A DNA stretch of 64,000 nt from the IMG/VR virus record IMGVR_UViG_3300005542_000007, positions 1-64,000 of that record; one strand, 5' to 3'. Below are positions 22,944-54,829 of this stretch, one piece after another; the stretch's first letter is position 1, and the number at the start of each line of letters is the position of its first letter. Both the position numbers and the translations under genes were made by a program. This stretch comes from a virus. The notes under the pieces are model-generated. The model was not told the origin of the DNA, ran no database searches, and was given only the letters and a program-made list of their open reading frames with translations.

Positions 22944-24116
22944 ATGGCAAAATGGATTGACCAGTTGTTCAGTTTGAACAAAGAAGCATCCACGGATGCC
23001 CAACAGGAATTTACGAAGAAAGTAAAAGCTTCTGGATGGGTTGATGGAGTGATGGGAATTGACGAACCAGCTTTAGTTAAAGAAGCTGACCAGAAGATAG
23101 AAGCCGAGCTTGCTGTTCGTGATGAAATTACGAAGGAAGCGGCTTATGAACCATTTCAGACAACTGAAGAAACTCTTAAGCATGACTACCGCAGAGACGT
23201 TTCTATCCTCAGTGACTTTACGCTTGCTTCAATGATTGCTGAAATGCGCGGCCATGCTAAGCAGGATTTTCCTGAGAACGCTACCGAATATTTTGAAGCC
23301 GCAAAGAAAGACGTTAAATCTGACCGTAAAGCAGTTGAAAAGGAACTCTTGGAAGGTACTGGAATGTCAGCACAACTTGATACATTTAAAGCTTTTGCTG
23401 ACTACAAGAAAGATGAAACTCCTAAACAAGCTACGGAGAAAGAGCTTTACAAGCCGCAGCTAAAAGATGTCAACGATGACCTTTCCAAAGGTGGAAAGGT
23501 TGACGCTTACGCCGAGACTGATGAACAACATGCGAAAACTATGTTGGGTGTTGGCCGCGAAGAGTCTGAAAGAACAGATGTAACCGCGCAGCCTGGGGAA
23601 GTTCATAAAAATGCCGCTTTGGTTCGTGATCCAGACACCGAGCTTCATATTGGTACGATTGTTCGTTTAGCGCGAACCATAATGACAAAAGAAGGCTTTC
23701 TACTTCCAGAAGGTTCTAGTTGGGAAGTGACTGAATTGGACGGATACCATTACACAATTAGCGCCAATGGCAAGAGCCACACAATCAGTGGACACGACAG
23801 CCCAAAGTTCAATAAGCTTGCATCACAGAAAGAAGCTGGATCTCCTCCATGTGCAAAATGTGGAAACAGCAAATACGAACATCCCACAGATGATGGGCAT
23901 TGTTCACAATACGTTCCTCCCACATCTGAGGAGCCTAAAAAGGCTTCACAAGAGATTGAGAACCGAGCAACCAAGGAGCAGATTTTTATTAAAATTGCAG
24001 AAATTAAATCTCCGTGGGCTGTAGTAGAAAAAGACGGACAAGAAGTAATTGCCAGGATTTCAGACGAACAAGTTTCCAAAGAATCAGTAGAGGAAAAAGA
24101 GAATTTAAATAAGTAA
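22944..24116 (+). CDS. Probable virion protein with cleavage-type motifs and a zinc module
   Basis: 390 aa, strong ribosome site (AAGGAGAATTACA). It starts with a 15-residue leader ending L11-N-K-E-A15, the motif seen at domain borders across the virion proteins. Further copies: L-V-K-E-A, I-T-K-E-A and a Q-K-E-A before a zinc module C-A-K-C-G-x5-H ... C-S-Q-Y-V-P-P. That module resembles the mini zinc-finger proteins upstream. The centre is acidic helix; residues about 225-290 look like a small barrel. I infer an internal head or packaged protein cut by the maturation protease. Confidence 0.55.
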   Translation: MAKWIDQLFSLNKEASTDAQQEFTKKVKASGWVDGVMGIDEPALVKEADQKIEAELAVRDEITKEAAYEPFQTTEETLKHDYRRDVSILSDFTLASMIAEMRGHAKQDFPENATEYFEAAKKDVKSDRKAVEKELLEGTGMSAQLDTFKAFADYKKDETPKQATEKELYKPQLKDVNDDLSKGGKVDAYAETDEQHAKTMLGVGREESERTDVTAQPGEVHKNAALVRDPDTELHIGTIVRLARTIMTKEGFLLPEGSSWEVTELDGYHYTISANGKSHTISGHDSPKFNKLASQKEAGSPPCAKCGNSKYEHPTDDGHCSQYVPPTSEEPKKASQEIENRATKEQIFIKIAEIKSPWAVVEKDGQEVIARISDEQVSKESVEEKENLNK

Positions 24117-24131
24117 TAGAGGTCGTCAGCC

Positions 24132-24314
24132 ATGTTTAAAGATGCCTATGAAATCCCTATAAACGTGGGAGACACGGTGCTTCTTAAAGATGGCTGTATT
24201 TGTTTCATAAGAGATTTTGTTGTATACGAAATGGCCGTTGAGACACTTTTAGAGGACAAACTTACACACAATTTTAGGACAGAGCAACCAAGAAACATAA
24301 TGAAAATTTCGTAA
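24132..24314 (+). CDS. Small barrel-like protein
   Basis: 60 aa. I-N-V-G-D-T-V-L-L-K-D-G looks like the first strands of an SH3-like barrel. It sits between two large virion-type genes. Function unknown. Confidence 0.5.
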   Translation: MFKDAYEIPINVGDTVLLKDGCICFIRDFVVYEMAVETLLEDKLTHNFRTEQPRNIMKIS

Positions 24315-24327
24315 CGAGGACACCACT

Positions 24328-27300
24328 ATGCTAGAAAAATTCGCAGGATACAAAACCCAGATTCGTGTACTTGAGAAAAAACTCAAGGAGATGGACCATT
24401 CTAAACTTTCACCAGCTAAAGTTAAAGAGGTGACGGAAGCTATCCAAAATCTCAAGAGTCTTGTCAAAGAGAAAGAAGATAAGAGAATTGAGCGCAAAAA
24501 GAAGAAAGAAGAAGCTGCTGCATCTAAACCCGTCGAAACTCCCAAAGTGGAAGCTGTTGCACAACCAGCCGAAGTTGTCAAGGAATCTTCCCCAGCACCC
24601 ACCGAAGTAACCAAAGAATCTACCGTCGAGAAATTTGCAGTTGATAGTAAAGTGGAACCCATTCGTGGTACTCCTGGAAGTTGGGGTACTGTTATCCGCG
24701 AAGCTGGAGTTAATGGTGATCCTTTAATTTACGTTAAGTGGAATGAAGGACATTTGAAAACCGCCCATGGCGATTACGGTGCGTATTATCCTTCCGATTT
24801 GCGTCTCAAAGTGGAAGCAAAGTCTCCAACCGATTATGTTCCCCGCGAACAGGTGTACAACCTCGAAGCTGATTACAAAGGTAAACTTTCAGCGATGATT
24901 AAGGATTTGGAAGAGGAAATTAAAACGGCTTATGATAAAGGTGAGGCAGTTTGGGCCCATCGTTTAGAACAGAAATTGTCTGATGCAAAGAAAGCCCTTG
25001 AAGAAAAATCTGAGAAAGAAGCTGCTGGTGTCCACGAGGGCTGGGATGTTATTCTTAACGGTAAAGTTATAAATAAAGTTTTTTATGTTCCAGGCGTATC
25101 GGCTGATGAAGTTAAAAGAGGTTTGGTTGAGCATGATGGATTTGACCCAGGAATTACAGTACGCAAAGAAAAACGCGCAGAAGATGAAAATGGAAGTGGT
25201 GGAACCAATAAACTTAAAGTGATTGATTTAACGCCAGCGCATGATAAAGACCCACAGGAGAAAGCCACAGGCTATGGTGGAGATCGTTCTATGGGAGCTT
25301 TGGTAGCACCTAACAGCGATGAGAATTCTTTGCCTTTAGAATCTTCTTTGGATAAAGATGCGAAGCACACTTTGAAGATTAAAAGCCTTGACGATGCTAT
25401 GGCAGATTGTTCAGAAGGTGACTGGCATTTTAGCGGTACCGGAGCCAGAACAAAAGAAGAAATTGAAGAACAATTTAAAAAGCATGTTCACGCCTCCCTC
25501 AATAAAAATTCCATAAATATTACAGTAGCTGAAAAGCTTTTCGTTGTTAATCCTTTAGCCAAGACAGCAGAGAATGAATACGTTTACGATGTATCTTTGT
25601 CCAATGGCGATAAGTTTTGTAAAATTACCTCCGAAGCCGAAATGGGTCAGGAGCATCTTTCTTATGCCATTGAGAAAGCTATTTTGAATCACAAAGAAGC
25701 ATCAAACAAGTGTGCAATCTGCAATATGGAATTTAAATCGTGGGAAGAATATGACGCACATAAAAAAGAAAAACACGGCCCCAAAATGGCCAAGCTTGTA
25801 AGCAACCTCGCCTTCTTGAAGAAAGGCTCGTTTGTCTCTATTTTAAATGTTGATAAAACAAAGAAACAAGTTAAGTTTGCATCATTAGATGGAACTCTTC
25901 GAGGTTGGGCACCAATACAGAAGTTTGCAGCATTTGCCGCTCCAGAAACCAATCTCGTTCCACATGAAAATCATCAAGATGAAGTGTTGGCTGAAAGTGG
26001 GCATGAGCTTCTAGTATCCTGTCCGGCCAACAGCACAAACGTTATTTGGAGAGCGGTTGAAGCTCCTCCGGCCACACCAGAAAGTTTGAATGATTTAGAA
26101 AGTAAGAAAATAGTTCCACACACGAAAGAATGTAATGAAGCAAATGACAGACATGTTGGGCCAACTGAAATTTGTATTTGTGATAGTAAGAAAGAAGCAG
26201 CCAAAGATTGTCCAGACTGTCATGGAAACTTTGTAGGGAAAGAAGATGAGAAATGCCCTACATGTGGAAGGTTTGCTGTAGAAGCACATTGTGGAATGCC
26301 TCATGGAGAGAAAAAAGAAGCTCGTGGATGCGATCAATGCAATGCAGCTATGATTAACGGTGTGTTTTGTCATGAAACTGGTTGTCCCAATAAACGCAAA
26401 GAACGTGAGCAGGAAGATATGGAGATGGAAAGCTCTTTAAATAAAGATTCCCACATTCGCCACGAAGATGGGAAATGGGTTATTTACAGTCACGATTACA
26501 AAAAGAAGCTTGGAACTTATGACACTGAAGAAGAAGCTAAAAAGCGTTTGGGACAAATTGAATATTTTAAGCATCAAGGTTCATTGCATCCATTATCCAA
26601 GAAAGAGGCTGCTGAAAAACTTAAACGTTGTGATTGCGGAAATTTAGTTTACCCAAATCATAAAGAACGATATGGGCATGAGTATATTACCCCAACAGAA
26701 TCCAAGAAAGAAGCTGGTGCAATGGATACAAAATGTGAAGAATGTGGTGAACCTTTGGGTCCTGAAGCATTCCTTTCCAAATGGCCAGTTTGTGGTAAAT
26801 GCACAAAGAAACGCCATGAGAAAGCAGTAGGAAAGAGAGCAGACCAGAATATTTCTCTAGAGCAACAGATACAAGGGTTTAAAGATCGCATGAGCGCAGT
26901 GACTGAAAGACTTTCAAATCCTCCAGTTAAAACAGCCGCTGAAACTTCAGAGCAAGCTCAAGAAGGTGAGAAGGTTATCGCCACTCCAGAGCTTATTGAA
27001 TCCATCGAGCGTGGAATTGACCTGCTCGAACAAAGGGTTGGAGAGGAAATTGCTCCAGAACAACAAACTAAATTAGAAGAGATGGAAAATCTTCTCTGGT
27101 CTGTTGAAGACTCTTTAGGACTTTCTCATCCATTACCTGAACACGAGAGGGTTGAACCAGAACATGCAACCGAAGTTGAAAAGCGCGAAGACGTTGAGAA
27201 AGAATCTGACATGTCCAACGTGCCTCCCCCCACCCCCGCGCCCCAGGGCTTTAGATATGCTTGGGAACCTATTAATAAAGAATGGATAATGGTAGCTGAC

Positions 27301-27339
27301 CCTAACGCAACTGGCACAGGAACAGGTGGAACGTACTAA
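24328..27339 (+). CDS. Giant multidomain virion-type polyprotein with zinc fingers
   Basis: 1003 aa. Order seen: coiled-coil start; SH3-like barrel (about 110-170); helical hairpin; strand-rich pieces; a classical C2H2 finger C462-x2-C465-x12-H478-x4-H483; at least three further CxxC/CxxC ribbons (about 630-665, 675-695, 760-775 and 800-820); an H-x2-H-E-D-G-K-W ... K-R-L-G-Q-I-E domain common in phage proteins; a helical domain; and a Pro-rich end. K-K-E-A or L-N-K-D motifs precede nearly every module. I read this as an array of independent domains joined by protease sites. No enzyme motif is visible. Confidence 0.6.
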   Translation: MLEKFAGYKTQIRVLEKKLKEMDHSKLSPAKVKEVTEAIQNLKSLVKEKEDKRIERKKKKEEAAASKPVETPKVEAVAQPAEVVKESSPAPTEVTKESTVEKFAVDSKVEPIRGTPGSWGTVIREAGVNGDPLIYVKWNEGHLKTAHGDYGAYYPSDLRLKVEAKSPTDYVPREQVYNLEADYKGKLSAMIKDLEEEIKTAYDKGEAVWAHRLEQKLSDAKKALEEKSEKEAAGVHEGWDVILNGKVINKVFYVPGVSADEVKRGLVEHDGFDPGITVRKEKRAEDENGSGGTNKLKVIDLTPAHDKDPQEKATGYGGDRSMGALVAPNSDENSLPLESSLDKDAKHTLKIKSLDDAMADCSEGDWHFSGTGARTKEEIEEQFKKHVHASLNKNSINITVAEKLFVVNPLAKTAENEYVYDVSLSNGDKFCKITSEAEMGQEHLSYAIEKAILNHKEASNKCAICNMEFKSWEEYDAHKKEKHGPKMAKLVSNLAFLKKGSFVSILNVDKTKKQVKFASLDGTLRGWAPIQKFAAFAAPETNLVPHENHQDEVLAESGHELLVSCPANSTNVIWRAVEAPPATPESLNDLESKKIVPHTKECNEANDRHVGPTEICICDSKKEAAKDCPDCHGNFVGKEDEKCPTCGRFAVEAHCGMPHGEKKEARGCDQCNAAMINGVFCHETGCPNKRKEREQEDMEMESSLNKDSHIRHEDGKWVIYSHDYKKKLGTYDTEEEAKKRLGQIEYFKHQGSLHPLSKKEAAEKLKRCDCGNLVYPNHKERYGHEYITPTESKKEAGAMDTKCEECGEPLGPEAFLSKWPVCGKCTKKRHEKAVGKRADQNISLEQQIQGFKDRMSAVTERLSNPPVKTAAETSEQAQEGEKVIATPELIESIERGIDLLEQRVGEEIAPEQQTKLEEMENLLWSVEDSLGLSHPLPEHERVEPEHATEVEKREDVEKESDMSNVPPPTPAPQGFRYAWEPINKEWIMVADPNATGTGTGGTY

Positions 27340-27351
27340 AAAGAGCTTGAT

Positions 27352-30300
27352 ATGAAAAAGATGCCCACCGCAGTTTTGCCAGCGGATTCTGAGTATGTCT
27401 ACGTACCTGATACGGACAGTTGGATTGTTCAGAAAAAGTCAGGTAATAAAGTACTGTCTAAAAAAGAAGCTTCTTTAATTATCCTCGCCCGTTTAGAAGA
27501 GATACATTCTAACTTGTTGAAGCAAGCTATTCAGCAGCAGGATGTTGTAGATTTTTATCTCCTTTCCCTCCTACCTCCAGACTACCTACAAGGTGATGAA
27601 ATAGGCACCGAACATTACGACGCCCTTTCTATTTTTAAATCGATTATTATGTCCCTCCGCGATGAATACATTGAGCGCGGTATGGATGAGTTAAAGGATG
27701 AAGCTAAAACTACAAGATGGGTTAAAGCTATTCCTGAAGAAGACATGCCAGAGGATTTGAAACCGTATTATAAATATCACGACGAACCATTTAGAAGTCG
27801 TCATGAATTTTATGAGGACGATGATAGATCATGGACTTATACGTGTTATAATTGTCAGAAAGGTTTGGAAGAAGGTGACGCTTATATTTTTAATGACGAA
27901 ACATATTGTGAAGATTGTGAAGGCGAAGCTATCAATGACGCAATAAAAGACAATGTTGCTTATTGCACAACTCACAATGTGTTTGTAACGGACGACGAGG
28001 GAATAAAGGAGTACATGTACGATTATCCAGTATCTGATGCGGAAAGCCATCCGGTAGGTCCAGAACATCAATTGGTTCGTTACAAAGAAGGAGTTCCAAT
28101 TTGGGATGAGATTCAAGAAAATGCAAAGAAACAATTACAATTAGAATTTGCGAAACGAAGAAAGAAGAGAGAACAAAAACAACCCAAACAATTAAATCTT
28201 CCCCAACCCACTTCCATGGCGTTCCCCGAAGCTTCTTTAAAGCAAGCTGGTGAAGGCGGTAGCAGCGGTCAAATTCACAGTGAAGATGGATGGTGGGAAG
28301 CACCACATAATTTTGACGATTATTCTTCCACAGATTTCTACAAGATTTTTGCATTAGCCCCTTGGAAATCCATGTATGGTGGTCCTTTGTGGGCTGAAGT
28401 AGCCAAAACCATTACTCAGATGGAGGGCACAACCGATTGGCAAAAGCTTATGGTTCTTATCGACCATTTTCATGACTTGGGCCACAATACAGGTAAGCTC
28501 TTAGACAAGTTTTCAGAGTGGCATAAATGGTTTAAAGAATTCTTAGACGAGAAAGCAAAAAAGAATTCTCTTCGATATCTTCTTCAAAGAGCTTCTGGTC
28601 CAGTTAAAAACCTCGTTACGGATTATTTACGAACATATGGAAAAACCTGGGTGGAGGAAGAAGAGGAACGTGAGTCTGCTGAAAGTAAATTGGAAGTTGG
28701 CGATGAAGCTATTTTTAATGGCCAAGTAGTTACGATTTTAAAAATATTTGAACCATCACATGTAGCTGATGTTCAATACACCGATGGTAAAAAAGACAGA
28801 GTTGTGATTGAAGATTTGAAAGAAATAGACATGCCAGCAGCCGTTTCAAGTCAGAAAGTACAATTACGAAAACTATCTAAAAAGCACGAAGAAGAAGCCA
28901 TTTGTCCATCTTGTGGGGAATGGAAACCAACTGATTTCTCTCCAGAACAATTGAAAGAGATGGACTGGGAATGTCTAGATTGTTCAACCAAACGAGCCCT
29001 TAATCCACAGGACCTTCCCGAGAATAGAGGACAGAAAGAAATTACAACTTTTGATCCTGAATATCAGTGGCTCCTTAAACTCATAAACGTTGTAACGAAG
29101 GCAGGAGTTCCTGCCCACGAAATAAAAGCCTTGAGTACGCAACATCCATTTGTTACAATTGATGACGCAGGTGATTTGGCCGCACAGATTTGGACATTGG
29201 CAACTGAAAGGTACCACATTCCACGAGAATGGTTGATGAAGAAATTGCCTGAAAAAAAAGCTAGTTTAAAAAAACAAGCAGAGATTATAGAGATTGGACT
29301 TACAAGCACCTCCCCACTTTTTCCTATTTTTATAAATCCAACTCCCAATGAAGCTTTGGGGTTATTGGCACGATCTCAAACAGGCGAACTAAGATATTTA
29401 TTTGGTGAGGATGGAAATACTTATCTGTGGGATGGGTATCATGGCGTTCATTTTGATGTGATAAATGAATTACATGCGTTGGGTTTTGATGTAGATGCTC
29501 ACACACCACAAGGAGAAGTTGTAGGTGAAAAAGCAGTTAGACAAATTTTTGGCACTTTAAATACAAAAGCTTACGAAGGCGGATATCCAACCGAGGAAGA
29601 CGCTACTTATATGGGTGGCGGTCCACAGGGTACCGTTGCTTATGAACCTGCTAAGCATGATTCTCAAACAGGTAGACGTGAAAGGGATGATGGAGAACCA
29701 ATAGTTATTTGTCCCAAATGCAAATCAAATAAAGTAGCAAAAGAAGGCGAACAAGTTAAGTGTCAAGCTTGCGGAACTAATTTTATTCCAGAACCAGATA
29801 GAGGTTCAGACGACCCAACAGTAAACGATTATAGCCAGAACTATTTTTTCGGACCTAGGGATCTCGGAACGGTGCCTAATAAGCAGCCAGGAGATTCCTT
29901 TTGGCAACCTTGGGGAACTGAGAACTCCGACGGAGTTTCTTCCAATGTTATGATGAGTAGTTTCAAATCCTTTATGCGTAAGCAATCCAATTTAAACAAA
30001 GTAGCTCACTGCGGCCCTTGTTCAGTCCTTAAGATGGAAGCTCTTCACATTCTCATCGATCTTTATTACAAAGATAATGATTTATTCCCCGAAGAAGTTA
30101 TAGAAGAACTTTCTGTTGCTACAACCGAGCTTGAGGTTGATAATTTTAACGACATTTTAGAAAGTGTTATTGAAGAATATTTAGAAGAGAAAGCTGAAGA
30201 GGTCGGAGATAAACTTCCAAAGCTTAAGAACCTTTTGATTGCTCTTAAAGATATTGCGCCTAAGCTTGGGAATGAAATTGAGATTGTGGATAAGCAAGCA

Positions 30301-43900: not shown

Positions 43901-44454
43901 CTAAAACAGAGCGTGAGAAAGCTCAACCCGCTACCGAAGAACAAGCTAAGTTGGTTCAGGAAATGCAGAGTTCTTTAAGCAGCCTTGAATCTATCAAATC
44001 AATGGTAGCTCAAGCTAAAGCCAAATTAAATGAAGAAATTAAAAATATCGAACAGTCAGGTGGAAGAGTTAACCTTGAAGCAGGACTTAAAGAAAAAATG
44101 GAACGTCTTGCCAAGCTCGTCGAAGCTACAGAAAACCAGATGATTAATGCTGGAGATACCGTAGTTCGTTTAGTGCAAGAAACCAAAGAGAAACCTTTTA
44201 AACCCTCAGATGCTTGGAAGGTACAGAAGCTTGTTGAGAAATTCGCAGGTGCCCAGGAGTATCTAGATAAGGCAATTGCTGGTGCTCAGAGTTTGGCCAC
44301 AACCGAACAAGTTAGGGACTTGGTATTCTTTCCTCGCAAAGTAAGTAAACTTCACAAATCGGCTGGATTTGTAGAAACCCTTGACGCTGTATATAACGAT
44401 GTTCTTGAAGCACTAAAACTTATTATTGGAAGTGACGAACCAGCGGTGGCGTAA
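40921..44454 (+). CDS. Giant multidomain virion-type polyprotein
   Basis: 1177 aa. N-terminal helical domain; G-W-A-I-H-K-R domain (about 140-185); acidic linkers; a small barrel (about 520-560); two zinc ribbons (about 585-605 and 622-645, C-P-N-C and C-W-N-C); a strand-rich domain with W-A-L-V-N-Y-x-T (about 680-745); helical modules; and a long coiled C-terminus. Motifs S-Q-K-K-V-A, E-K-V-A, E-K-K-A-A, I-E-K-K-A and L-H-K-S-A separate modules. Stop is followed directly by the GTG of a membrane protein. Likely an internal or packaged protein. Confidence 0.55.
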   Translation: MKNLLASWFRNLTAFDEGPVEQSFSIVDPTAAQADGLNTVILSVNPSDENSPTIVSLRFDPSGVKLFEKKYQNDAEAQTEMAAMATDLNEASSLSKAGKTEEAKKLAEALFEKYKRHSEPVVNEQPTSTMTQASQDSLQYKGWAIHKRPEGDWMAEHDVISFRADSVDTLKAKIDNATRKAIGRKLKAGITMQNLFFDTVDEAMEFQEKTKALQGPEGSEEGKPLWEQMGAGEEQVAPSNETEPEEDTELAPPSLSFDRIEKDKAKTDKDIGKRIKEQVKTEVESALEQKSASVFGPDQEELVEALRKNGRNWDEIKKIFTKELSYNEDDTTVFLDSIRQKEEGGPAEGLPMAPKPPEDLVSPETHDKLVKEIEDKSEPKPEPLPLADEIARADNAEIRKVADVTDSSRGRNWKVTYYDKNDKVISSHTIKDRTEAEASKEAQGDMPSGCEDWSMMPVKNKKSSQEKVALNPLQEPPAVGQAPGQPLAAPVEENPTFDSPVPPSQDSNPEPEFLEAPQAGDRVYVMGDYETGEDGYEGTMVSDYTSKGDEYAVISKDNGENAEVALHRVVKASQKKVAQVYYEKVASEIYCKNPDCKRKATVRRPDGNWCEKHAPTYEKKAAKTCPNCGKEIWDVSTVDQRLNKCWNCGIRFDNPEEESIESEADLEVEGKGNEDVIRMFISDSFPKDKMPVWGTNNLKITKYPNGWALVNYQTPILYRGNDNPDVIVFNAHKYSVTTSKIQTQIRRMFTGQSVKETDESGIYAAIDQSNLAVPEPEFTTELKNASLAGQDRIVTMVSQIMGREKNLNQETVADLGYIKMYAEDELKTTYGTDLQSLHESALKLQAELEHEGEIAIYFHKEGIEKKADIYDDSAFEANGWCRVWIQELAITSDAKYPEILKIADENARITALKEFARELAHEALRDADSAASKVGVQSWFESLQPSNHDRIDWVSLANPTQENVESSLKTAADSVPEVSKEVPTQFKNLERAPAKTEREKAQPATEEQAKLVQEMQSSLSSLESIKSMVAQAKAKLNEEIKNIEQSGGRVNLEAGLKEKMERLAKLVEATENQMINAGDTVVRLVQETKEKPFKPSDAWKVQKLVEKFAGAQEYLDKAIAGAQSLATTEQVRDLVFFPRKVSKLHKSAGFVETLDAVYNDVLEALKLIIGSDEPAVA

Positions 44455-46845: not shown

Positions 46846-48567
46846 ATGGGACGACCCAAGGGCTCAAAAAATATTACTAAAAGCGCTGAACAAGTAAAAG
46901 CACCCGTATCTATTGTTACAGGTGAAGGAATTACTGGCTCCACCACTTCTTTTGGTGTAGATGCAGGATTGATGAAAATTGGTTCTTTGAATAAGCAAGC
47001 CAATTATGGTGTATCACAAACTTCTTCATTTTTCTACAGTCCAGAATTAACCACAGAATCATGGCTCCTTCCTAAGTCCCGCCAAGAAACTTGCCGCTGG
47101 GCTCGTGTATTCTACAATTTAAATCCTATTGTGCATAGCGTTATTAACATGCATTCGAAGTATCCTTTTTCCAAATTTGAGCTTGTTTGTGGAGACCCAA
47201 CGGTAAAACAATTTTACGAGCAAATGTCATTTAATAAAAATTTCAATTTGTACGATTTTATGTTACAAGCTTCCCTTTCCTACGAAAAATTTGGTGAGGC
47301 CCTTTGCTTTGGTACGATGGAGAAAAAGGGTGACAAGGTTCAATGGACCAAGTTCGTTCTTCTTGAGCCAGAACTCATTGATGTAAAGTCGGATATGATG
47401 AGCGGAAAGCAAACCTTTGAGATGGTTCCAACATCTGAACTCAAACAACTTGTTACTTCCACTCGTCCTGAAGATTCTGAGGCTCAAAAGCAACTGGAAG
47501 AGTGGTCCCCAGAAATTGTAAAAGCCATTAAGGAAAATAGAAACATTCGTCTTTCAGATGAAAATGTTTCTATTATTGCAAATCTTACTGATCCTTCAGC
47601 CACTCGTGGGACAAGTCGTATTCAGTGTCTATTTAAAGATTTGATTCTAAATGACTTCATTCGTTTGGCGCAGATGGCGTATGCTCAACGTTATGTATTT
47701 CCAGTTGAAATGTGGTCCATTGGAGATATTGCAAACAACATCATTCCAAGCACGACCGATTTACAGAACTGGAAACAGCTTATCAATCAGTCTATTCAAC
47801 AGCCTCCATTTTCACTTGTTACACCTCCATATGTTAAGTATGAAGCTTTGAGTACAGCAGGAAAAACATTCCCGGTAAACACAGAATGGTATGAGTATAC
47901 GCTCAGCCAATTGATGATTGGGTTAGGTGTAAACAAGAATTTGATGACTGGTGATGGACCTTCATTCAGTGCAGGACTTAAAGGAATGTCCCTTCACCGT
48001 TTAATGATGGAATATAAAGCGGTTAGAGACAAATTTGAAGATTGGATTATTCATAAATTCTTTGAACCAATCGCAGAAAAGAACCAATTTTATACAGTTG
48101 AAAATGGAATGAAGAAGCTTATTCTTCCAGAACTTTCTTGGAAGAAATCCCTCGACATTGAAGATGCTGAAGCAGAACGCGAAATGTTCGTAAAAATGTG
48201 GGAAGCCGGAGTTATCAGCACGGAAACTCTCTTCACGAAATTCCCCACTCTTGACTTCAAGACGGAACAGAAGAAATTGGAACTTGAGCGTGGAACTATT
48301 TTTGATAAGGGTGATGGTGCTAGGTTGCCTGAGAAAATTCACAAGTCAGTTGTTAAGCCAGGAGGCGATACTGGATTTGGTGGAAAAGGCGGTGGCGGAG
48401 CAGCCCCAGGCGCTGTGAAACCAATAAAGCCAGTAAAACCCACCAAACCTGGAGAAGTTCCTGAAGGTGGAGAGCCAGCAGCCCCAGGCGCACCTGAAGG
48501 TGCTGCCCCAGCAGGTGGTGAAGCTCCAGCAGCAGCCGTTACACCAGCAACACCGACAGTGGAGTAA
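46846..48567 (+). CDS. Portal protein
   Basis: 573 aa. The middle has the portal pattern: W-A-R-V-F-Y-N-L-N-P-I-V-H-S-V-I-N-M-H, a V-E-M-W-S-I-G-D core, and M-I-G-L-G-V-N-K-N-L-M-T-G-D-G before a long helical stem. The N-terminal 52 residues end in S-L48-N-K-Q-A52, the same motif as in the capsid and giant proteins, so a short leader may be removed. The C-terminal 60 residues are a Pro/Gly/Ala linker. Confidence 0.88.
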   Translation: MGRPKGSKNITKSAEQVKAPVSIVTGEGITGSTTSFGVDAGLMKIGSLNKQANYGVSQTSSFFYSPELTTESWLLPKSRQETCRWARVFYNLNPIVHSVINMHSKYPFSKFELVCGDPTVKQFYEQMSFNKNFNLYDFMLQASLSYEKFGEALCFGTMEKKGDKVQWTKFVLLEPELIDVKSDMMSGKQTFEMVPTSELKQLVTSTRPEDSEAQKQLEEWSPEIVKAIKENRNIRLSDENVSIIANLTDPSATRGTSRIQCLFKDLILNDFIRLAQMAYAQRYVFPVEMWSIGDIANNIIPSTTDLQNWKQLINQSIQQPPFSLVTPPYVKYEALSTAGKTFPVNTEWYEYTLSQLMIGLGVNKNLMTGDGPSFSAGLKGMSLHRLMMEYKAVRDKFEDWIIHKFFEPIAEKNQFYTVENGMKKLILPELSWKKSLDIEDAEAEREMFVKMWEAGVISTETLFTKFPTLDFKTEQKKLELERGTIFDKGDGARLPEKIHKSVVKPGGDTGFGGKGGGGAAPGAVKPIKPVKPTKPGEVPEGGEPAAPGAPEGAAPAGGEAPAAAVTPATPTVE

Positions 48568-48812: not shown

Positions 48813-48818
48813 AACCCC

Positions 48819-48846: not shown

Positions 48847-48904
48847 TAGGGGATATTGTCCCTAGGTAATTTTAAAACAAAGGAAAGAATAGATAGGAGA
48901 ATTT

Positions 48905-49168
48905 ATGCCAAACGAGAAACCAAGAAAAGAGATAAATTTCATCACTATTGATGAACATGGAAATGAGCATTTGAATCTGCATATTTTTATTGAAAGCTTG
49001 CTTACATTATCAATGGGCACAGCCCTAGATATGGGACGTTTGGCTATTCAGCACAAAGAAGCATTTGAACAATTTCAGCGAACTGTGAAAGACGATTCAT
49101 ACGACCGTATTGAATTTGCACACAAAATTTTAAAGAAGTATGGTTACGAAGACAACACTAGGATTTAA
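48905..49168 (+). CDS. Hypothetical head-region protein
   Basis: 87 aa with TAGGAGA site. Helical, acidic start; no motifs. First gene behind the promoter-like element, in front of the MuF stub. Confidence 0.5.
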   Translation: MPNEKPRKEINFITIDEHGNEHLNLHIFIESLLTLSMGTALDMGRLAIQHKEAFEQFQRTVKDDSYDRIEFAHKILKKYGYEDNTRI

Positions 49169-49171
49169 AAA

Positions 49172-49507
49172 ATGCAAGAAAGCAACGAGTGGTCAGCAAA
49201 CTTAGCTGAGAAGCACAGCATTTCGAAAATTGCTGTTGCAACAGAAGTGAGTTTGCCAACCTTCCAAAGATTATTGGGAGATGGATACACAATTGCTATT
49301 TGGAAAACTATTAATCCAGTGCCCTGTATGCGTTGTCAGGATTTAGAAGCACAACAATTTAACTTTGCTGATTTTGTAAACAGTACGACGCACGATGCCC
49401 CGATCTTCTCCAAATCTCATCCGAACTGCCGTTGTGTCATTATTTGTACCGGAGATGGGCTACCTACTCTTCAAATCGATTTTACAGGAAATCCTTCAGA
49501 GGCTTAA
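49172..49507 (+). CDS. MuF-type minor head protein, C-terminal stub
   Basis: 111 aa. W-K-T-x5-P-C-M-R-C-Q-D ... S-H-P-N-C-R-C is the signature of the C-terminal domain of Mu gpF/SPP1 gp7 minor head proteins. The usual protein is 250-500 aa; here only this domain is present, with a short helical start. Likely sits at the portal vertex. Confidence 0.75.
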   Translation: MQESNEWSANLAEKHSISKIAVATEVSLPTFQRLLGDGYTIAIWKTINPVPCMRCQDLEAQQFNFADFVNSTTHDAPIFSKSHPNCRCVIICTGDGLPTLQIDFTGNPSEA

Positions 49508-49510
49508 TTT

Positions 49511-52500
49511 ATGGCATTGACAAAACGTGGAACCATTTTAAGGATTACTAAGACTGCTGCATCTGCAACGGAGCTTCTTATTGACCGCCCTCTAATAGAA
49601 GAGACAAAAGTGGTTGAGGGAAAAAATCCTGAGTTTCTATACTTTGTTGCCAAAGCAATTGCAGCAGGGGATGAAGGTCCGATTGATAAAAATGGTTCTA
49701 GAGAGCCTAACTACAACGGAAATGCCGACTACTTCCCTAAGAAAGAAATTGAAGGCGCATATCAAACATTTATTGGCAAAGGTATTTACCTCGACCACAA
49801 CGCATCCAGCGTTATGTATTCTGTTGGTAAGATTATCGATGCTTTTCCCACGGTAGACCCAGATAATAAAGAGTGGAGCATTTCTTGTCTCGCCAAGATT
49901 GATAGAAAGCTCCATCCAGAAATTGCTCGTAAAGTAGAGACGGGTGAACTAAACACCGTTTCTATGGGTTGTTCTTGCGGTGAATCAAAGTGTTCTGTTT
50001 GTGGAACAGTCCTTAGAACTGACGATGATCCAAAATGCGCTCACCTTTCTCCTGGGAAATTGATGCATGATTTTGAAGCAGAGATTGACCTTCCAGAGTT
50101 TGGAATTCATAAGGGGCAGACCGTAAAGAGTTTTGCTATTAACTCTGAAATTAATTTTAATGAGCTTTCGCTTGTCGGCGTTCCTGCATGGCCACGAGCA
50201 TTTGTCACAACAATTTTAAGTAATCTTAAGAATACAATTAGTAAACAAGCTTCTCTTACGAAAGAGGAGCAACTCGATTTAGTAGCGCAGTTTGAAAAGC
50301 TTGTGGACACTTTAGATGCGAACACAAAAGAACAGGTCAAAGCCGAATTTTGCGGTTGCCCAATTGTTAAGGAGAACAACATGTCCGATACCCCCCAGAA
50401 ACAATCGAACGACGAAGTAACAGATTTATTGAAGAAAGTGAGTGCTTATGAGATGGAGAAGCTTGAGAATTATATCCAACATAAGACACGCAAAGCAGAA
50501 GCGACCGCTGCTGCTGATACAAAGACCAATGATTCCAATTGGATGAACGGCATCCTTGAGAAAGCAAAAAATACGGCTGCTGGGAAGGTATTTGCAAGAA
50601 CGATTCAGCGATTGGCTGAAGAGGAAAAAGTAACAAAAAAGGCAGATACCGATCCTGATAAATGTGCAATTTGTGAAAAAAAGCTTGGCGACAATGATGA
50701 TTATATATGTGCCAAATGCAAAGTTGAAGATGAAAAGAAAGATAAAAAATCATCCCTCACAGCTACATTTACAGTAAACAAAGCAGAACCAATGAAATCT
50801 TCTTGGACTCTCCTAGACGGTAATGACAAAGTTATTTTAGATGCTTCACTCCATGAGATTTGGGGAGACCAGTTTGAAGCAAATCAAGATTTTGCAATCA
50901 GTGAAGAATATGGCAGAGCAATTGCCGCACGATTTTTAGATCCTAAACTTGGAGGCGTTGAGAAACTTGCCGACCTTTGGGATGTTTCTTATAAATTAAA
51001 TAAAGAGGCTATTATGGACAAAACATCCGAACACGGCGAATTTTTCAAAGCTAAAGATTTCTTTGTACCTGGAAGTGATTCTTCTAATAAATACACTCCA
51101 GAGGAGATTAAACATATGCAAGAAAAAGAACACACAGAAGCGAAGGGTAAAAAGGTTGAGGCTGGGCATATTGACGAAAAATTTGATATTACGGAAGGTA
51201 AGGGCAAACTCTTTGATGCAAAGAATTTCTTTGAGCCCGGATCAGATTCCTCAAATAAGTGGAATGATAAACGAGTTAAAATTGAATACAATATTAAGTT
51301 CCCTGGGCAAGAGGAAGGTCAAAAAGGTCCAGCCGCTCCCAAGAGCAAAGATGTAAAGACAGAATACAATATTCCAGGTAAGGCTCCAGAGGCTGGTCAA
51401 AAAGGCCCTGCGGCCCCTAAGCACGAAGATGTTAAAACAACCTATGATTTTAAAAAGCCAGAAGGCGAGTTCGTTAATACAAATAAGAAAACCAAACTTG
51501 ACGAAGAACATGCTAAGTCGGAAGAGAAAGTCAAAACTGGTTACAAAGGCGATTTGATGTATGATGAAGAGAAAAAGTCCGAGAAAAAGGCTGCTAAAAC
51601 TGTAGGGGACGCTCCCGAAGGCGCAGTGGCAGAAAGCCAATATCCCAAGAAAGATGCCAAAACTTCTGGTGATGAACCAGATTCTTCTTATAATAAAACA
51701 GCAAAAACCGTTGGCGATGCTCCTGAAGGTTCTGTTGAAGAGAGCCAATATCCAAAAGCCTCCGAACCAAATAAAGATCCCGAAGCTTCAGTTGCTGAAA
51801 ACAATATGCCAAAGGGCACACCAAATCTAACAAAAACACCTGATAGTTCAGTTCAGGAAAAGATGCCAGCACCCGCTAAATCGGATAAAGATCCTGAAAC
51901 ATCCGTAAAGGATACAGAATTTAAAAAGCATCCAGACCTCACAAGTAAGCCTGAAACTTCTTCTAAGGAAGACCAGTATCCTACTCCAGCCAATCCAGAT
52001 AAGGACCCAGATTCTTCAGTACAAAAAGGTTCTAATCTTAAAGTTGCCAAAACCCCGGAAGGTTGGGAACATGCTGTTCGTGAAATGAAGAAAGAAAAGG
52101 ATATTGATAATCCTTGGGCAGTGGCGAACTGGATGAAAAATAAAGGTTATACGCCTCATAAGAAATCTGAGCTTGATTTGAAAGCCGATTCTGAGATGTG
52201 TGAGAAATGTTCCATGCCGCTACATGAATGTGCTTGCATGGCCGCTCAGGAAGACATGGGCCCAGCAATGGATGCTCCCAAGCCGGAAGTTGGCTCAGCT
52301 TTTGACAAGGTTGAAGACAAACTTACTATTGGTGATGGGTACGATGCTTCTAAGGACAAAGAAACCAAAGAGATAGTTATTTCCAAAGATGGCAAGGAAA
52401 TGAAGCGTCTTCCAGATGGTTTTGGTGCTGATGTTGCTTCTGTTACAAGTCTTCTAAAAGCCGTTCTTGGTCTTCCTGCAACGGAAGAGAAAAAAGATGA

Positions 52501-53089
52501 AAAACCAGGAGAAACCCTTTCCCCCGTAGATGAAGTTGTAGAGAAAGTTGAAGTTCATCCTGAAATGTCTTCTCCTTCCGAAACGCCTTCCCTCAAAGCC
52601 TCTGCTCTTGAAGTTGAGCTTGAAAAGAAAGCTGCCGAACTCAAGGTTAAGGAAGAGGAAATTGGTAAGAAAGAAGCTATTCTCATTGCCAAAGAAGCTG
52701 AAATTAAGGCTGAGAGGTTCCAAAAGGCTGTTGCTTCTCGCACAGATCGTTGCCGCAGAGTGATTGAAGCCATGCTTGAGAAAAATGTTTTGTCAATGGA
52801 TGACACGGTATTGAAAGAGAAATTGCAAGAAGGTACATATCTCTTGGATGCCCGTAAAGCTGCTCTCGATCACGCCATTTCAGCAAAGCTTAAGGAGCTT
52901 ATGGCTTCCGATGATGTAGCACTTGCAGCCATTGAGAAAACAGTCAATGATATCAAGCTTCCAGAAGCTGAAGTTTCTAAGAAAGCCAATCGCGTACCTT
53001 TTGTTAAATGGGATGCAATTCCAACAGAAGAAGATGAAATAAAAGGCATCTTTGATCAAATGGGCCGTAGGTCGCATTGGAATCAGTAA
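49511..53089 (+). CDS. Head maturation protease fused to a long scaffold
   Basis: 1192 aa. The first 240 residues fit a prohead protease: D-H96-N-A in Y-L-D-H and T-V-S151-M-G as probable His/Ser pair, ending N-E-L-S-L-V-G-V-P. A zinc-like Cys insertion (C-S-C-G-x3-C-x2-C, later C) follows S151. The N-terminus has I12-T-K-T-A16. The rest is a very long acidic region with repeats such as T-V-G-D-A-P-E-G and D-S-S-V/E-T-S-V, a G-W-E-H-A-V-R-E-M-K-K domain and a coiled C-terminus, as expected of a scaffold. Motifs I-S-K-Q-A, L-N-K-E-A and V-S-K-K-A mark possible self-cleavage. Confidence 0.7.
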   Translation: MALTKRGTILRITKTAASATELLIDRPLIEETKVVEGKNPEFLYFVAKAIAAGDEGPIDKNGSREPNYNGNADYFPKKEIEGAYQTFIGKGIYLDHNASSVMYSVGKIIDAFPTVDPDNKEWSISCLAKIDRKLHPEIARKVETGELNTVSMGCSCGESKCSVCGTVLRTDDDPKCAHLSPGKLMHDFEAEIDLPEFGIHKGQTVKSFAINSEINFNELSLVGVPAWPRAFVTTILSNLKNTISKQASLTKEEQLDLVAQFEKLVDTLDANTKEQVKAEFCGCPIVKENNMSDTPQKQSNDEVTDLLKKVSAYEMEKLENYIQHKTRKAEATAAADTKTNDSNWMNGILEKAKNTAAGKVFARTIQRLAEEEKVTKKADTDPDKCAICEKKLGDNDDYICAKCKVEDEKKDKKSSLTATFTVNKAEPMKSSWTLLDGNDKVILDASLHEIWGDQFEANQDFAISEEYGRAIAARFLDPKLGGVEKLADLWDVSYKLNKEAIMDKTSEHGEFFKAKDFFVPGSDSSNKYTPEEIKHMQEKEHTEAKGKKVEAGHIDEKFDITEGKGKLFDAKNFFEPGSDSSNKWNDKRVKIEYNIKFPGQEEGQKGPAAPKSKDVKTEYNIPGKAPEAGQKGPAAPKHEDVKTTYDFKKPEGEFVNTNKKTKLDEEHAKSEEKVKTGYKGDLMYDEEKKSEKKAAKTVGDAPEGAVAESQYPKKDAKTSGDEPDSSYNKTAKTVGDAPEGSVEESQYPKASEPNKDPEASVAENNMPKGTPNLTKTPDSSVQEKMPAPAKSDKDPETSVKDTEFKKHPDLTSKPETSSKEDQYPTPANPDKDPDSSVQKGSNLKVAKTPEGWEHAVREMKKEKDIDNPWAVANWMKNKGYTPHKKSELDLKADSEMCEKCSMPLHECACMAAQEDMGPAMDAPKPEVGSAFDKVEDKLTIGDGYDASKDKETKEIVISKDGKEMKRLPDGFGADVASVTSLLKAVLGLPATEEKKDEKPGETLSPVDEVVEKVEVHPEMSSPSETPSLKASALEVELEKKAAELKVKEEEIGKKEAILIAKEAEIKAERFQKAVASRTDRCRRVIEAMLEKNVLSMDDTVLKEKLQEGTYLLDARKAALDHAISAKLKELMASDDVALAAIEKTVNDIKLPEAEVSKKANRVPFVKWDAIPTEEDEIKGIFDQMGRRSHWNQ
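50381..53089 (+). CDS. Nested in-frame scaffold start
   Basis: An in-frame ATG at 50381 is preceded by TAAGGAGAACAAC, a near-perfect ribosome site at ideal spacing and identical in style to those of whole genes here. It would produce a 902-aa protein lacking the protease, starting just past the protease domain. This copies the lambda C/Nu3 arrangement, in which the scaffold is made in excess from an internal start. The site is seen; its use is inferred. Confidence 0.6.
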   Translation: MSDTPQKQSNDEVTDLLKKVSAYEMEKLENYIQHKTRKAEATAAADTKTNDSNWMNGILEKAKNTAAGKVFARTIQRLAEEEKVTKKADTDPDKCAICEKKLGDNDDYICAKCKVEDEKKDKKSSLTATFTVNKAEPMKSSWTLLDGNDKVILDASLHEIWGDQFEANQDFAISEEYGRAIAARFLDPKLGGVEKLADLWDVSYKLNKEAIMDKTSEHGEFFKAKDFFVPGSDSSNKYTPEEIKHMQEKEHTEAKGKKVEAGHIDEKFDITEGKGKLFDAKNFFEPGSDSSNKWNDKRVKIEYNIKFPGQEEGQKGPAAPKSKDVKTEYNIPGKAPEAGQKGPAAPKHEDVKTTYDFKKPEGEFVNTNKKTKLDEEHAKSEEKVKTGYKGDLMYDEEKKSEKKAAKTVGDAPEGAVAESQYPKKDAKTSGDEPDSSYNKTAKTVGDAPEGSVEESQYPKASEPNKDPEASVAENNMPKGTPNLTKTPDSSVQEKMPAPAKSDKDPETSVKDTEFKKHPDLTSKPETSSKEDQYPTPANPDKDPDSSVQKGSNLKVAKTPEGWEHAVREMKKEKDIDNPWAVANWMKNKGYTPHKKSELDLKADSEMCEKCSMPLHECACMAAQEDMGPAMDAPKPEVGSAFDKVEDKLTIGDGYDASKDKETKEIVISKDGKEMKRLPDGFGADVASVTSLLKAVLGLPATEEKKDEKPGETLSPVDEVVEKVEVHPEMSSPSETPSLKASALEVELEKKAAELKVKEEEIGKKEAILIAKEAEIKAERFQKAVASRTDRCRRVIEAMLEKNVLSMDDTVLKEKLQEGTYLLDARKAALDHAISAKLKELMASDDVALAAIEKTVNDIKLPEAEVSKKANRVPFVKWDAIPTEEDEIKGIFDQMGRRSHWNQ

Positions 53090-53295
53090 TTTAAGAAGTA
53101 AAATTTAAAAACCTCAATTCGAGGAAAGTTGACGGTTCGATATACTGCATAAAAGAATGAAAGCATAGATTTCCTCAGATGTCCTTTGGAAAAGTTGTTA
53201 AAGTAATGAGTCTCTGAACAACTCTCTCCTTGAAAAGAAAAGCAAAGAAAAGCCAAAACTAACTCATGTTGTTAAATTAATTAAGGAGTTACAAA
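53090..53295 (+). other. 206-base intergenic leader before the capsid genes
   Basis: Contains a CCTC-N5-GAGG hairpin at 53112-53124, the GTTGACG-N6-TATACT element at 53128-53146, and a strong AAGGAG site before 53296. Probably the leader for decoration and capsid protein expression. The promoter class is unclear. Confidence 0.35.
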
Positions 53296-53787
53296 ATGGC
53301 TATTACCATCTACAAAGAAGTAAATCGCTCACCAGGAGCACCAGTTCTTTCGGGAACTATCTCTGGTGGTACGGTTCTAGCTTGGGACCCAGCTAATACA
53401 GGTAAGGTTTTGCCTTTCGGTACAGGCACACCAACACCTCAACAGCCCTACGGTCTAGCCTGTGAATCCAACGTAATTCCTCCACTCCAACCCGCGTCCG
53501 GTCTAGTTGCTGGCCAGGGTTTTGACTACACCAACTTCAACCGCGACGGTTTGATGGGTGCATTCATTAATGGTGGAGAATTCCAGTTGTACGATGACGG
53601 TCTAGGAGCAGGAAAGCCTTACGAGAATGGCACATACGCAATCAATGATCTAGTTTATGCTGATTATTCAGCAACAGGCGCAGCTAACATCACGCCTACA
53701 TCTACATCTAACGTTGCAATTGGTGTTGTTACATTCTTCGATCAGGCCGTAAATCCCAATCAGCTAAGAATCAAATTGCTCATCTAA
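53296..53787 (+). CDS. Probable capsid decoration protein
   Basis: 163 aa. Gly/Pro/Thr-rich beta protein with G-T-I-S-G-G-T-V-L-A-W and a late A-I-G-V-V-T, like the small head decoration/stabilisation proteins that precede major capsid genes in many phages. Well-spaced ribosome site and G/C-richer codons, as in the capsid gene, suggest high expression. Confidence 0.6.
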   Translation: MAITIYKEVNRSPGAPVLSGTISGGTVLAWDPANTGKVLPFGTGTPTPQQPYGLACESNVIPPLQPASGLVAGQGFDYTNFNRDGLMGAFINGGEFQLYDDGLGAGKPYENGTYAINDLVYADYSATGAANITPTSTSNVAIGVVTFFDQAVNPNQLRIKLLI

Positions 53788-53860
53788 TAACAATTAGATA
53801 GTAAAGTTTTAACAAGATCGTCAGCAATGATGACTTGTATATTTTTCAAGGAGAATTATT

Positions 53861-54829
53861 ATGTCAGAACAAGTTACCAAAACCGCTTCTCCTGATGACA
53901 TTTATGCCGCTGGCCTAACTGCCGCTCAGGTTGAAGAAAAGCTAACTCGTCTGATGAACAGTCCTGGTGGATTGCAGAAGATCGCTCAGCAAATGTTGAG
54001 CCCTCTAAAGCGCGAACTTCTATACGAAGGTCGCATTCGCCAATTGTTCCAGACGTACAAACTCGCGCTAGGCGAGGAAGCTGTGTTTGACGCCGATCTA
54101 GACGTTCCAGCCGCATCCATTTCCGTTCATGGTTTGCCACAGGAACTACAGGTCGAAGCAGATCGTATCCGCGTCGAAACTGGCCCACTAGCAACCCGTC
54201 CCTTGATCCGTTGGAACGAATCAAACTTCCGCAAGTACGATGTTCTTAATCGTACCCAGGAACGTGCGAAGGCTTCCATTATGCTTCAAGAAGACACAAA
54301 AGGTTTTCAGCTTATCGACTTCGCTGCTGGTCTAACAAATCAGACCCCAGTGAACTCACTAGCAGGAACCTCTGCTGCAACCAATAACCCAACCGTTCTA
54401 ACAACGACTGGTAAGTTGGACATGCAGACACTAGTAACAGGTATTGTTACACTACGTTCAAAGTTGCTCGTAGCTTCAAAGATTTATTTGAACCCACTAC
54501 GAACTGCTGACCTCATGCTCTTCAACACAACCACATCAGGGACAGGCGGGGCCGGAATTTTCGCTCCCAATTTCCAGGATATGGCATTGAAAGCTGGTCG
54601 CGTAGGTGGAATCTGGGGCGTTGATGTCCTAGAGTCCGTAGTTGTTCCTACGGCTAACACATACGTTCTAGCCCCAGCAGATTATCTTGGCGTTCTCGCC
54701 GTTCGTACTGATATCTCTGTTGAGACGATGAAAGATGTAAACCAGATGGCAGACATTTTTGCAATTTGGGAAGATATTGGATTCTTGATCCGATACGCCA
54801 AAGGTATCGTCAAGATCGTAGTTAGCTAA
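53861..54829 (+). CDS. Major capsid protein
   Basis: 322 aa, AAGGAGAATT site. Position after scaffold and decoration genes, codon use of a highly expressed gene, a helical N-arm, then a strand-rich body with a late Y-V-L-A-P-A-D-Y-L-G-V-L and I-W-E-D-I-G-F, as in HK97-fold capsids. The start V5-T-K-T-A9-S matches the putative protease motif, so about nine residues might be removed. This fits better than any alternative in the window, but the fold is not proven. Confidence 0.8.
   Translation: MSEQVTKTASPDDIYAAGLTAAQVEEKLTRLMNSPGGLQKIAQQMLSPLKRELLYEGRIRQLFQTYKLALGEEAVFDADLDVPAASISVHGLPQELQVEADRIRVETGPLATRPLIRWNESNFRKYDVLNRTQERAKASIMLQEDTKGFQLIDFAAGLTNQTPVNSLAGTSAATNNPTVLTTTGKLDMQTLVTGIVTLRSKLLVASKIYLNPLRTADLMLFNTTTSGTGGAGIFAPNFQDMALKAGRVGGIWGVDVLESVVVPTANTYVLAPADYLGVLAVRTDISVETMKDVNQMADIFAIWEDIGFLIRYAKGIVKIVVS

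What the first reader, a model, noticed from the sequence alone, without database searches (positions are those of the whole stretch)
22944..54829. Shared [LIVM]-x-K-x-A motif in capsid, portal, protease-scaffold and five giant proteins: a candidate maturation-protease polyprotein system
Seen: L-N-K-E-A (22944 protein, residues 11-15), L-N-K-Q-A (portal, 48-52), I-T-K-T-A (protease, 12-16), V-T-K-T-A (capsid, 5-9), and many copies in the giant proteins such as S-L-K-Q-A, L-K-K-Q-A, L-N-K-V-A, L-D-K-Q-A, L-I-K-Q-A, L-V-K-Q-A, I-E-K-S-A, M-N-K-Q-A. In the 1479-aa and 1611-aa proteins they fall between recognisable domains. Known: T4-like and phiKZ-like phages cut head proteins at short consensus sites. 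Inference: here the site is hydrophobic-x-K-x-A and the giants are packaged polyproteins released as separate effectors.
Basis: partly seen in the sequence, partly recalled or inferred. Interest (0 to 1): 0.88.

Follow-up and report, generated by a model that had tools for sequence, protein, structure and literature searches.

The report
Phage head polyproteins with protease sites
This virus of bacteria carries the same short protein motif, probably the cutting site of its head-building protease, in its capsid, portal and protease and between the enzyme domains of several giant proteins, which suggests that it makes sets of enzymes as cuttable chains, much as RNA viruses do.

Summary
In 12 head-cluster proteins [LIVM]xKxA occurs 44 times against 13.7±3.6 in locally shuffled proteins. 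The rest of the genome shows no excess (17 vs 19.8), and R, E, shifted and reversed controls are flat. In 38 giant proteins from six related phages it is the most over-represented of 6,270 comparable patterns (172 vs 55). The refined site is [hydrophobic]-x-K-x-A|[S/A] (KxAS 72 vs 14.6; RxAS and ExAS at chance).

It sits where head-protease cut sites belong: in the N-terminal tails of portal, protease and capsid, just after the protease domain, and between modules of the giants. Half of the sites coincide with homology breakpoints (51% vs 29.5±3.4%). Copies of one module in different contexts keep a site directly upstream (12 of 21 vs 2.2 expected). Modules are swapped or inserted at these sites between sister phages. 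The excess recurs in the head cluster of cultured Bacillus phage G.

Best reading: the giants are modular head polyproteins cut in trans by the head maturation protease. Cleavage, packaging and injection are inferred, not shown. The closest known systems are T4/phiKZ/SPN3US head processing and polyvalent proteins; in the papers I could search, the combination was not described.

The parts
49511..53089 (+). head maturation protease (N-terminal ~235 residues) fused to a long scaffold-like region, 1192 aa
   Evidence: phrog_18299 head maturation protease 2.5e-15; H96 and S151 invariant in 11 relatives; Foldseek best viral match Bacillus phage G Gp19, 6.6e-15
49544..49558 (+). site ITKTA|A in the protease N-tail
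   Evidence: INKTA, ITKRA, ILKTA in relatives, LVKTA in phage G gp19
50237..50251 (+). site ISKQA|S directly after the protease domain
   Evidence: ISKKAS, FTKTAS, ISKNAS, MRKKAS, LTKKAS at the same place in five relatives
46846..48567 (+). portal protein, 573 aa
   Evidence: phrog_16240 1.2e-38
46873..46887 (+). site ITKSA|E in the portal N-tail
   Evidence: ISKQA|E in sister G004
46987..47001 (+). site LNKQA|N in the portal N-tail
   Evidence: LAKTA|N, LNKTA|G, LNKTA|T, MQKTA|T in relatives; MAKQA|A in phage G gp14
49172..49507 (+). small head-cluster protein, 111 aa, with N-tail site ISKIA|V (49220-49234)
   Evidence: IHKIAV, LNKEAA, LNKEAA, LNKQAV at the same place in relatives with diverged flanks
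53861..54829 (+). major capsid protein, 322 aa
   Evidence: phrog_2522 1.5e-35; NF042927 5e-36, above its cut-off
53873..53887 (+). site VTKTA|S in the capsid N-tail
   Evidence: INKEAS, IEKEAS, IVKEAD in relatives; others LNVEAS or KVTPAD without the Lys
27352..31791 (+). 1479-aa giant: zinc-ribbon-like parts, LMW-phosphatase module (995-1122), Cys-rich modules, WIDPxGK module (1281-1396), C-terminal module
   Evidence: Pfam LMWPc 1.7e-25; modules recur in other orders in relatives
29266..29280 (+). site LKKQA|E (residue 639)
   Evidence: start of the MWDxxD module; HSPs begin at 632-640
29992..30006 (+). site LNKVA|H (881)
   Evidence: low-confidence N-terminal edge of the model
30286..30315 (+). 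tandem sites VDKQA|MLKQA|F (979-988) before the phosphatase module
   Evidence: G004 has a different module after VDKEA here; pLDDT <50 at 967-989
30730..30744 (+). site LDKQA|K (1127) after the phosphatase module
   Evidence: PHROG/Pfam phosphatase match ends at 1119-1122; pLDDT <50 from 1125
31162..31176 (+). site LIKQA|N (1271) before the WIDPxGK module
   Evidence: same place in LNKQAN, LNKKAN, FSKKAG copies
31558..31572 (+). site SQKQA|S (1403) before the C-terminal module
   Evidence: LNKKA|K and IVKNA|E before its homologues
33920..38755 (+). 1611-aa giant: nucleotidyltransferase-like, HAD, WIDPxGK, 2H phosphodiesterase and MWDxxD modules and others
   Evidence: 2_5_RNA_ligase2 7.8e-10; five separate PHROG families match separate stretches
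35135..35149 (+). site IEKSA|S (406)
   Evidence: between HAD (290-411) and WIDPxGK (416-530) modules
35792..35806 (+). site LVKQA|Q (625)
   Evidence: directly before the 2H module; HSPs to other phages start at 619-632
36332..36346 (+). site VKKNA|S (805)
   Evidence: between 2H and MWDxxD modules
37193..37207 (+). site MNKQA|K (1092)
   Evidence: conserved in G004
38459..38473 (+). site VAKLA|A (1514)
   Evidence: sister G004 carries an extra WIDPxGK module inserted exactly here
24328..27339 (+). 1003-aa giant with 6 strict motif copies
40921..44454 (+). 1177-aa giant with 5 strict motif copies
22944..24116 (+). 390-aa protein with LNKEA|S, LVKEA|D, ITKEA|A, VHKNA|A and others
38866..40029 (+). 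387-aa protein with LKKQA|E, VEKKA|S, IKKQA|S

Best explanation
[quoted passage not shown] The protease frees itself by cutting in its N-tail and just behind its domain. It trims the tails of portal and capsid and cuts the giant head-cluster proteins in their linkers, so that each giant is a polyprotein of independently folding modules (phosphatase, HAD, 2H phosphodiesterase, nucleotidyltransferase-like and unknown modules). Relatives reshuffle modules at these linkers. Shown here: the motif, its specificity profile, its placement and its coincidence with module borders. Inferred from T4/phiKZ/SPN3US precedent: that it is cut, by this enzyme, inside the prohead. Further inference: that the freed modules are packaged and ejected into the host as early effectors.
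For: Enrichment in head-cluster proteins only, replicated in G002, G003, G004, G005, G008 and G010 with flat R and E controls and in phage G gp1-27 (25 vs 9.7, maximum of 300 shuffles 17; three other 50-kb stretches of phage G at chance). Top of 6,270 patterns in 38 giants. Preferences on both sides of the Ala: Ser 43 vs 17 and Ala 39 vs 19 after it, Asn at P4, Glu/Gln/Thr at P2; KxAS 72 vs 14.6, RxAS 4 vs 5.2, ExAS 14 vs 15. Between sister phages the P3 Lys is kept 30 of 30 and the P1 Ala 90%, while P4 and P2 are kept 67-70%. Same positions in protease N-tail, post-protease linker, portal tail, 111-aa protein tail and capsid tail across relatives. Sites at homology breakpoints 51% vs 29.5±3.4% random and 31.4% composition-matched. 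WIDPxGK module: strict site upstream in 12 of 21 copies vs 2.2 expected; MWDxxD 6 of 12 vs 1.3; 2H 4 of 6 vs 0.6; HAD 3 of 6 vs 0.6. Module replacement at VDKQA/VDKEA and insertions at VAKLA and LQKLAPVAKQA between G000 and G004. In the model of residues 876-1479, five of six sites lie in pLDDT<50 linkers and the sixth beside one. Catalytic motifs intact by inspection: CSGNTCRS, two HxT motifs, DMDDT, GS..DMD.
Against: No cleavage was observed. About a third of strict matches are expected by chance. Half of the sites are not near a detected breakpoint. The capsid motif loses its Lys in several relatives, and phage G's capsid has none. The motif is also in TerL, normally not a virion protein, though at chance level. 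Low model confidence partly reflects a shallow alignment. HSP edges and orthologous copies are not independent. A ClpP-like protease encoded at 20218 could be the enzyme instead.
Confidence: 0.72

Rival explanations
1. The motif is a docking or packaging tag, not a cut site: each module carries a short peptide that binds scaffold or capsid so that it is taken into the prohead.
For: It would also give one copy per module and enrichment in head genes only. In T4, packaging signal and cleavage site lie together (own knowledge).
Against: A tag does not explain copies flanking the protease domain on both sides, copies in portal and capsid tails, or the Ser/Ala preference directly after the Ala.
Confidence: 0.1
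2. The sites are real cut sites, but the giants are core or scaffold proteins that are shredded and lost, as T4 core proteins are, not effectors.
For: The scaffold part of the 1192-aa protein carries sites too; head-cluster location.
Against: In the giants sites are sparse (about one per 200 aa), lie at module borders, and the modules keep catalytic motifs.
Confidence: 0.1
3. The sites are cut by another protease: the ClpP-like enzyme (20218), the trypsin-like lipoprotein (33262), or a host protease after injection.
For: Both genes lie in or next to the cluster and match their families; the ClpP-like protein carries three motif copies, and ClpP-like head proteases exist.
Against: The head maturation protease carries the best conserved sites around its own domain. 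In the distant clade G006/G007/G009 its own tail and the portal tails share the altered form x-[KR]-x-[AG]-S.
Confidence: 0.12
4. Composition artefact: Lys/Ala/Glu-rich linkers produce the pattern without function.
For: Linkers are rich in these residues, and a third of strict matches are expected by chance.
Against: Local shuffles, R, E, shifted and reversed controls, and composition-matched positions all leave the excess unexplained.
Confidence: 0.02

Closest known systems
Head proteolysis by T4 gp21, phiKZ gp175 and SPN3US gp245 (PMC10052503, read in part; T4 and phiKZ details from own knowledge)
   Same: Protease in the head cluster; one short consensus cut in capsid, portal, the protease itself and internal proteins; Ser preferred after the cut in SPN3US.
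   Different: Here P1 is Ala and P3 Lys, not xxE. SPN3US cuts, apart from the protease's own, remove N-terminal propeptides, whereas here sites lie between enzyme modules of 1000-2700-aa proteins.
Polyvalent proteins (Iyer et al. 2017, PMC5512222)
   Same: Large multidomain proteins with disparate enzymes next to virion genes, thought to be injected; the authors draw the analogy to RNA-virus polyproteins.
   Different: There release is attributed to peptidase domains embedded in the protein. No peptidase was found in these giants by Pfam; the predicted cutter is the head protease acting in trans at a shared consensus.
Bacillus phage G head cluster (gp1-27)
   Same: Homologous portal, protease (gp19) and capsid; the same motif enriched, with MAKQA in the portal tail and LVKTA in the protease tail.
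   Different: Capsid without the motif; relatives of these giants were not found in cultured phages beyond single modules.
Herpesvirus assemblin maturation site (own knowledge)
   Same: Ala before and Ser after the cut; head-assembly protease followed by scaffold.
   Different: P3 is aliphatic there, Lys here.

Membership tests
Tailed-phage head maturation protease system | protease homologous to known head maturation proteases, encoded between portal and capsid | tested here: met
Tailed-phage head maturation protease system | conserved catalytic Ser and His | tested here: met
   H96 and S151 invariant among 11 sequences; their catalytic role is inferred
Tailed-phage head maturation protease system | common short site in tails of capsid, portal and protease | tested here: met
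   weaker for the capsid, whose Lys is lost in some relatives
Tailed-phage head maturation protease system | resemblance to a solved protease structure | tested here: inconclusive
   no PDB match by sequence or fold; model mean pLDDT 74; predicted viral proteases match
Tailed-phage head maturation protease system | cleavage seen in virions | not testable with these tools
   needs proteomics
Polyvalent proteins | several unrelated enzymatic domains in one polypeptide | tested here: met
Polyvalent proteins | encoded with virion genes | tested here: met
   same-strand cluster with TerL, portal, protease and capsid
Polyvalent proteins | embedded peptidase releasing the domains (in some members) | tested here: not met
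   no peptidase family in the giants
Polyvalent proteins | packaged and injected | not testable with these tools
   needs virion proteomics and a host assay
RNA-virus-like polyprotein | consensus cut sites between folded domains | tested here: met
RNA-virus-like polyprotein | protease is part of the same chain | tested here: not met
   protease is encoded separately at 49511; only the protease-scaffold would cut itself

The most novel reading that the evidence does not exclude
A family of phages stores its early-infection enzymes as modular head polyproteins that the head maturation protease dices at a shared site, so that the effector repertoire evolves by inserting and swapping cassettes that each carry their own cut site.
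Probability: 0.55. Interest if true: 0.87.

Novelty: new variant of a known kind. Interest (0 to 1): 0.76.

Why it matters
It would tie two separate observations, prohead proteolysis and multidomain injected proteins, into one mechanism, and show that tailed phages use a trans-cleaved polyprotein strategy. It turns anonymous giant proteins into a parsed list of modules with predicted mature ends, explains how phages exchange effectors by domain, and gives exact predictions for a cultured phage (Bacillus phage G). It also shows how a protease specificity can be read from genome sequence alone.

Tried and rejected
Capsid LQKIA (38-42) as a second cut site: it lies in an invariant structural stretch, and phage G (RVALA) and Myrna (IQRLG) lack it at the corresponding place, so it is probably structural. 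TerL LSKAA: within chance. Lys/Ala composition as the cause: rejected by local shuffles, controls and composition matching. Variant [KR]-x-I-x-A, seen upstream of two or three modules: not enriched overall (17 vs 15.9). Tunturi_5 shows no KxA excess and Myrna only a weak one. PDB sequence and fold searches for the protease found nothing. Two viral-contig scans with whole giants returned only the near-identical contig and the sister, because modules are shuffled and diverged; the record-by-record search worked better. No paper on phage G head proteolysis was found in the library.
Full report
What the window is. The window is bases 1-64,000 of a 141,877-bp virus record, nearly all genes on one strand. 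The head cluster lies at about 22.9-54.8 kb: giants, TerL (44992), portal (46846), a 111-aa protein (49172), protease-scaffold (49511), a 163-aa protein (53296) and capsid (53861). PHROG matches: TerL 1.1e-17, portal 1.2e-38, head maturation protease 2.5e-15, major head protein 1.5e-35.

Observation. In 12 head proteins (8,984 aa) there are 44 matches to [LIVM]xKxA; shuffling within 40-residue blocks gives 13.7±3.6 with a maximum of 26 in 300. In 69 other proteins with more than 6% Lys (15,367 aa) there are 17 against 19.8. Exchanging Lys for Arg or Glu, shifting by one residue or reversing the motif removes the excess.

Replication. Capsid relatives were fetched from viral contigs and long records examined through handles. 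The head cluster of each of six relatives shows the excess: G002 46/16.9, G004 47/16.3, G005 61/22.9, G008 33/16.7, G010 40/15.3, G003 14/6.4, while [LIVMF]xRxA and [LIVMF]xExA stay at chance. Among 6,270 hydrophobic-gap-residue-gap-residue patterns in 38 giants of six genomes, h.K.A ranks first (172 vs 55), ahead of the Cys-pair patterns of zinc ribbons. Orthologous copies in G000 and G004 are not independent; the single-genome test in G000 is.

Specificity. Positions not used for selection are non-random: Ser (43 vs 17) and Ala (39 vs 19) follow the Ala, Asn at P4 (33 vs 11), Glu, Gln or Thr at P2, Ser at P6. KxAS is enriched even without the hydrophobic residue (46 vs 11), and h.K.A even without Ser or Ala after it (123 vs 47.6); RxAS and ExAS are at chance. 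Several positions contribute independently, as in a protease subsite profile. Between G000 and G004 the Lys is kept in 30 of 30 sites and the Ala in 90%, against 81% and 74% for Lys and Ala elsewhere, while the neighbouring P4 and P2 are kept in 67-70%.

Placement in conserved head proteins. The protease has a site in its N-tail in most relatives of this clade (ITKTA, INKTA, ITKRA, ILKTA; LVKTA in phage G gp19) and one right after its domain in six genomes (ISKQAS, ISKKAS, FTKTAS, ISKNAS, MRKKAS, LTKKAS). Portal tails carry one or two sites before the conserved core, the 111-aa protein one, and capsid tails VTKTAS, INKEAS, IEKEAS or IVKEAD, though some have LNVEAS or KVTPAD. In the more distant G006/G007/G009 the protease tail reads IRKAG or IIRVG and the portal tails ITKNGS or IAKTGS; [h]x[KR]x[AG]S is enriched there (13 vs 4.8, maximum of 200 shuffles 11). 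That last test was chosen after seeing the tails, so it is weaker. It fits sites co-varying with their protease.

Placement in the giants. The giants are mosaics of modules that recur in other orders, up to a 2,693-aa protein in G002 with several WIDPxGK modules. Of 172 sites, 51% have a homology breakpoint within 12 residues, against 29.5±3.4% for random positions (maximum of 2,000 draws 40.7%) and 31.4% for composition-matched positions. For a given module in different contexts, the 35 residues around its start contain a strict site in 12 of 21 WIDPxGK copies (2.2 expected), 6 of 12 MWDxxD (1.3), 4 of 6 2H (0.6) and 3 of 6 HAD (0.6); a looser KxA is present in 19/21, 12/12, 5/6 and 6/6. In sister G004 the phosphatase module behind VDKQA-MLKQA is replaced by another module behind VDKEA, and extra WIDPxGK modules sit exactly behind VAKLA and before LQKLAPVAKQA. 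The AlphaFold model of residues 876-1479 places VDKQA, MLKQA, LDKQA, LIKQA and SQKQA in stretches with pLDDT below 50, and LNKVA beside one; the alignment was shallow, so this is supporting evidence only.

What the modules are. The 1479-aa protein holds a low-molecular-weight phosphatase (1.7e-25) with its CSGNTCRS loop. The 1611-aa protein holds a nucleotidyltransferase-like N-terminus (by inspection, GS..DMD), a HAD phosphatase (phrog_1238 4e-24; DMDDT), a 2H phosphodiesterase (7.8e-10, two HxT motifs; a sub-threshold Acb1 match at 9e-4) and other stretches that match stand-alone phage families. In cultured phages single modules, but no whole giant, were found.

Cultured relative. Bacillus phage G shares portal, capsid and protease homologues. 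Its gp1-27 stretch holds 25 motifs against 9.7 expected, while three other 50-kb stretches are at chance. Its portal begins ...MAKQA|ASK and its protease ...LVKTA|AKV. This is the quickest experimental test.

Mechanism. Shown: a head-cluster-specific, protease-like consensus placed in tails and module linkers. Inferred from T4, phiKZ and SPN3US precedent: the head maturation protease cuts it in the prohead. Inferred further: the freed modules stay in the head and enter the host. I give 0.72 to cleavage by this protease with release of modules and 0.55 to the whole effector-polyprotein picture.

Relation to known systems. Works like: T4/phiKZ/SPN3US head processing. Built like: polyvalent proteins, for which embedded peptidases are the proposed processing route and an analogy to RNA-virus polyproteins has been drawn. 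What differs is a shared trans site between modules and module shuffling at that site. The library searched holds only open-licence papers, so absence of a precedent there is not proof of novelty.

Noticed in passing
G008 protease ORF (record position 117530-122236) and G009 protease ORF (11736-15989, locus L112): The head maturation protease seems to be interrupted by an intein directly at the active-site Ser motif (VSMG|CFKEGTQILLSD...KVGDKVL). The portals of G008 and G009 also look intein-bearing.
   Followed up: no
L123 (Mycobacterium phage Myrna) and L131 (Gordonia phage Pupper): In head-cluster proteins of these actinophages K-x-[AS]-S-R occurs 7 times against 0.2 expected. It was found after looking, so it is only a lead that their protease site is a variant of the one here.
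   Followed up: partly
window 20218-20880: ClpP-like protein (Pfam 1e-26) upstream of the head cluster with three copies of the motif, one in its N-tail; a possible second head protease.
   Followed up: partly
window 33262-33912: Trypsin-like protease (Pfam Trypsin_2 2.4e-25) with a lipoprotein-like signal (LLFSAC) between two giants.
   Followed up: no
window 31833-32546: DeoC/LacD-family aldolase gene between the giants (Pfam 7.1e-10).
   Followed up: no
window 19153-19911: Membrane protein that by eye resembles an M50/site-2 protease (HEASH near the N-terminus); not searched.
   Followed up: no
window 20887-21708 and 40036-40908: Two similar proteins that look by eye like HNH-type homing endonucleases; the second lies between two giant genes.
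   Followed up: no
window 33920-38755, residues 632-795: 2H phosphodiesterase module with a sub-threshold match to anti-CBASS Acb1 (9e-4); could be an injected anti-defence enzyme.
   Followed up: no
window 55148-55222: Single tRNA-Met gene just downstream of the capsid gene.
   Followed up: no
G000 69189-69785: 198-aa protein among the tail genes with three motif copies (VEKVAS, IYKVAK, VNKVAE), unlike its neighbours.
   Followed up: no
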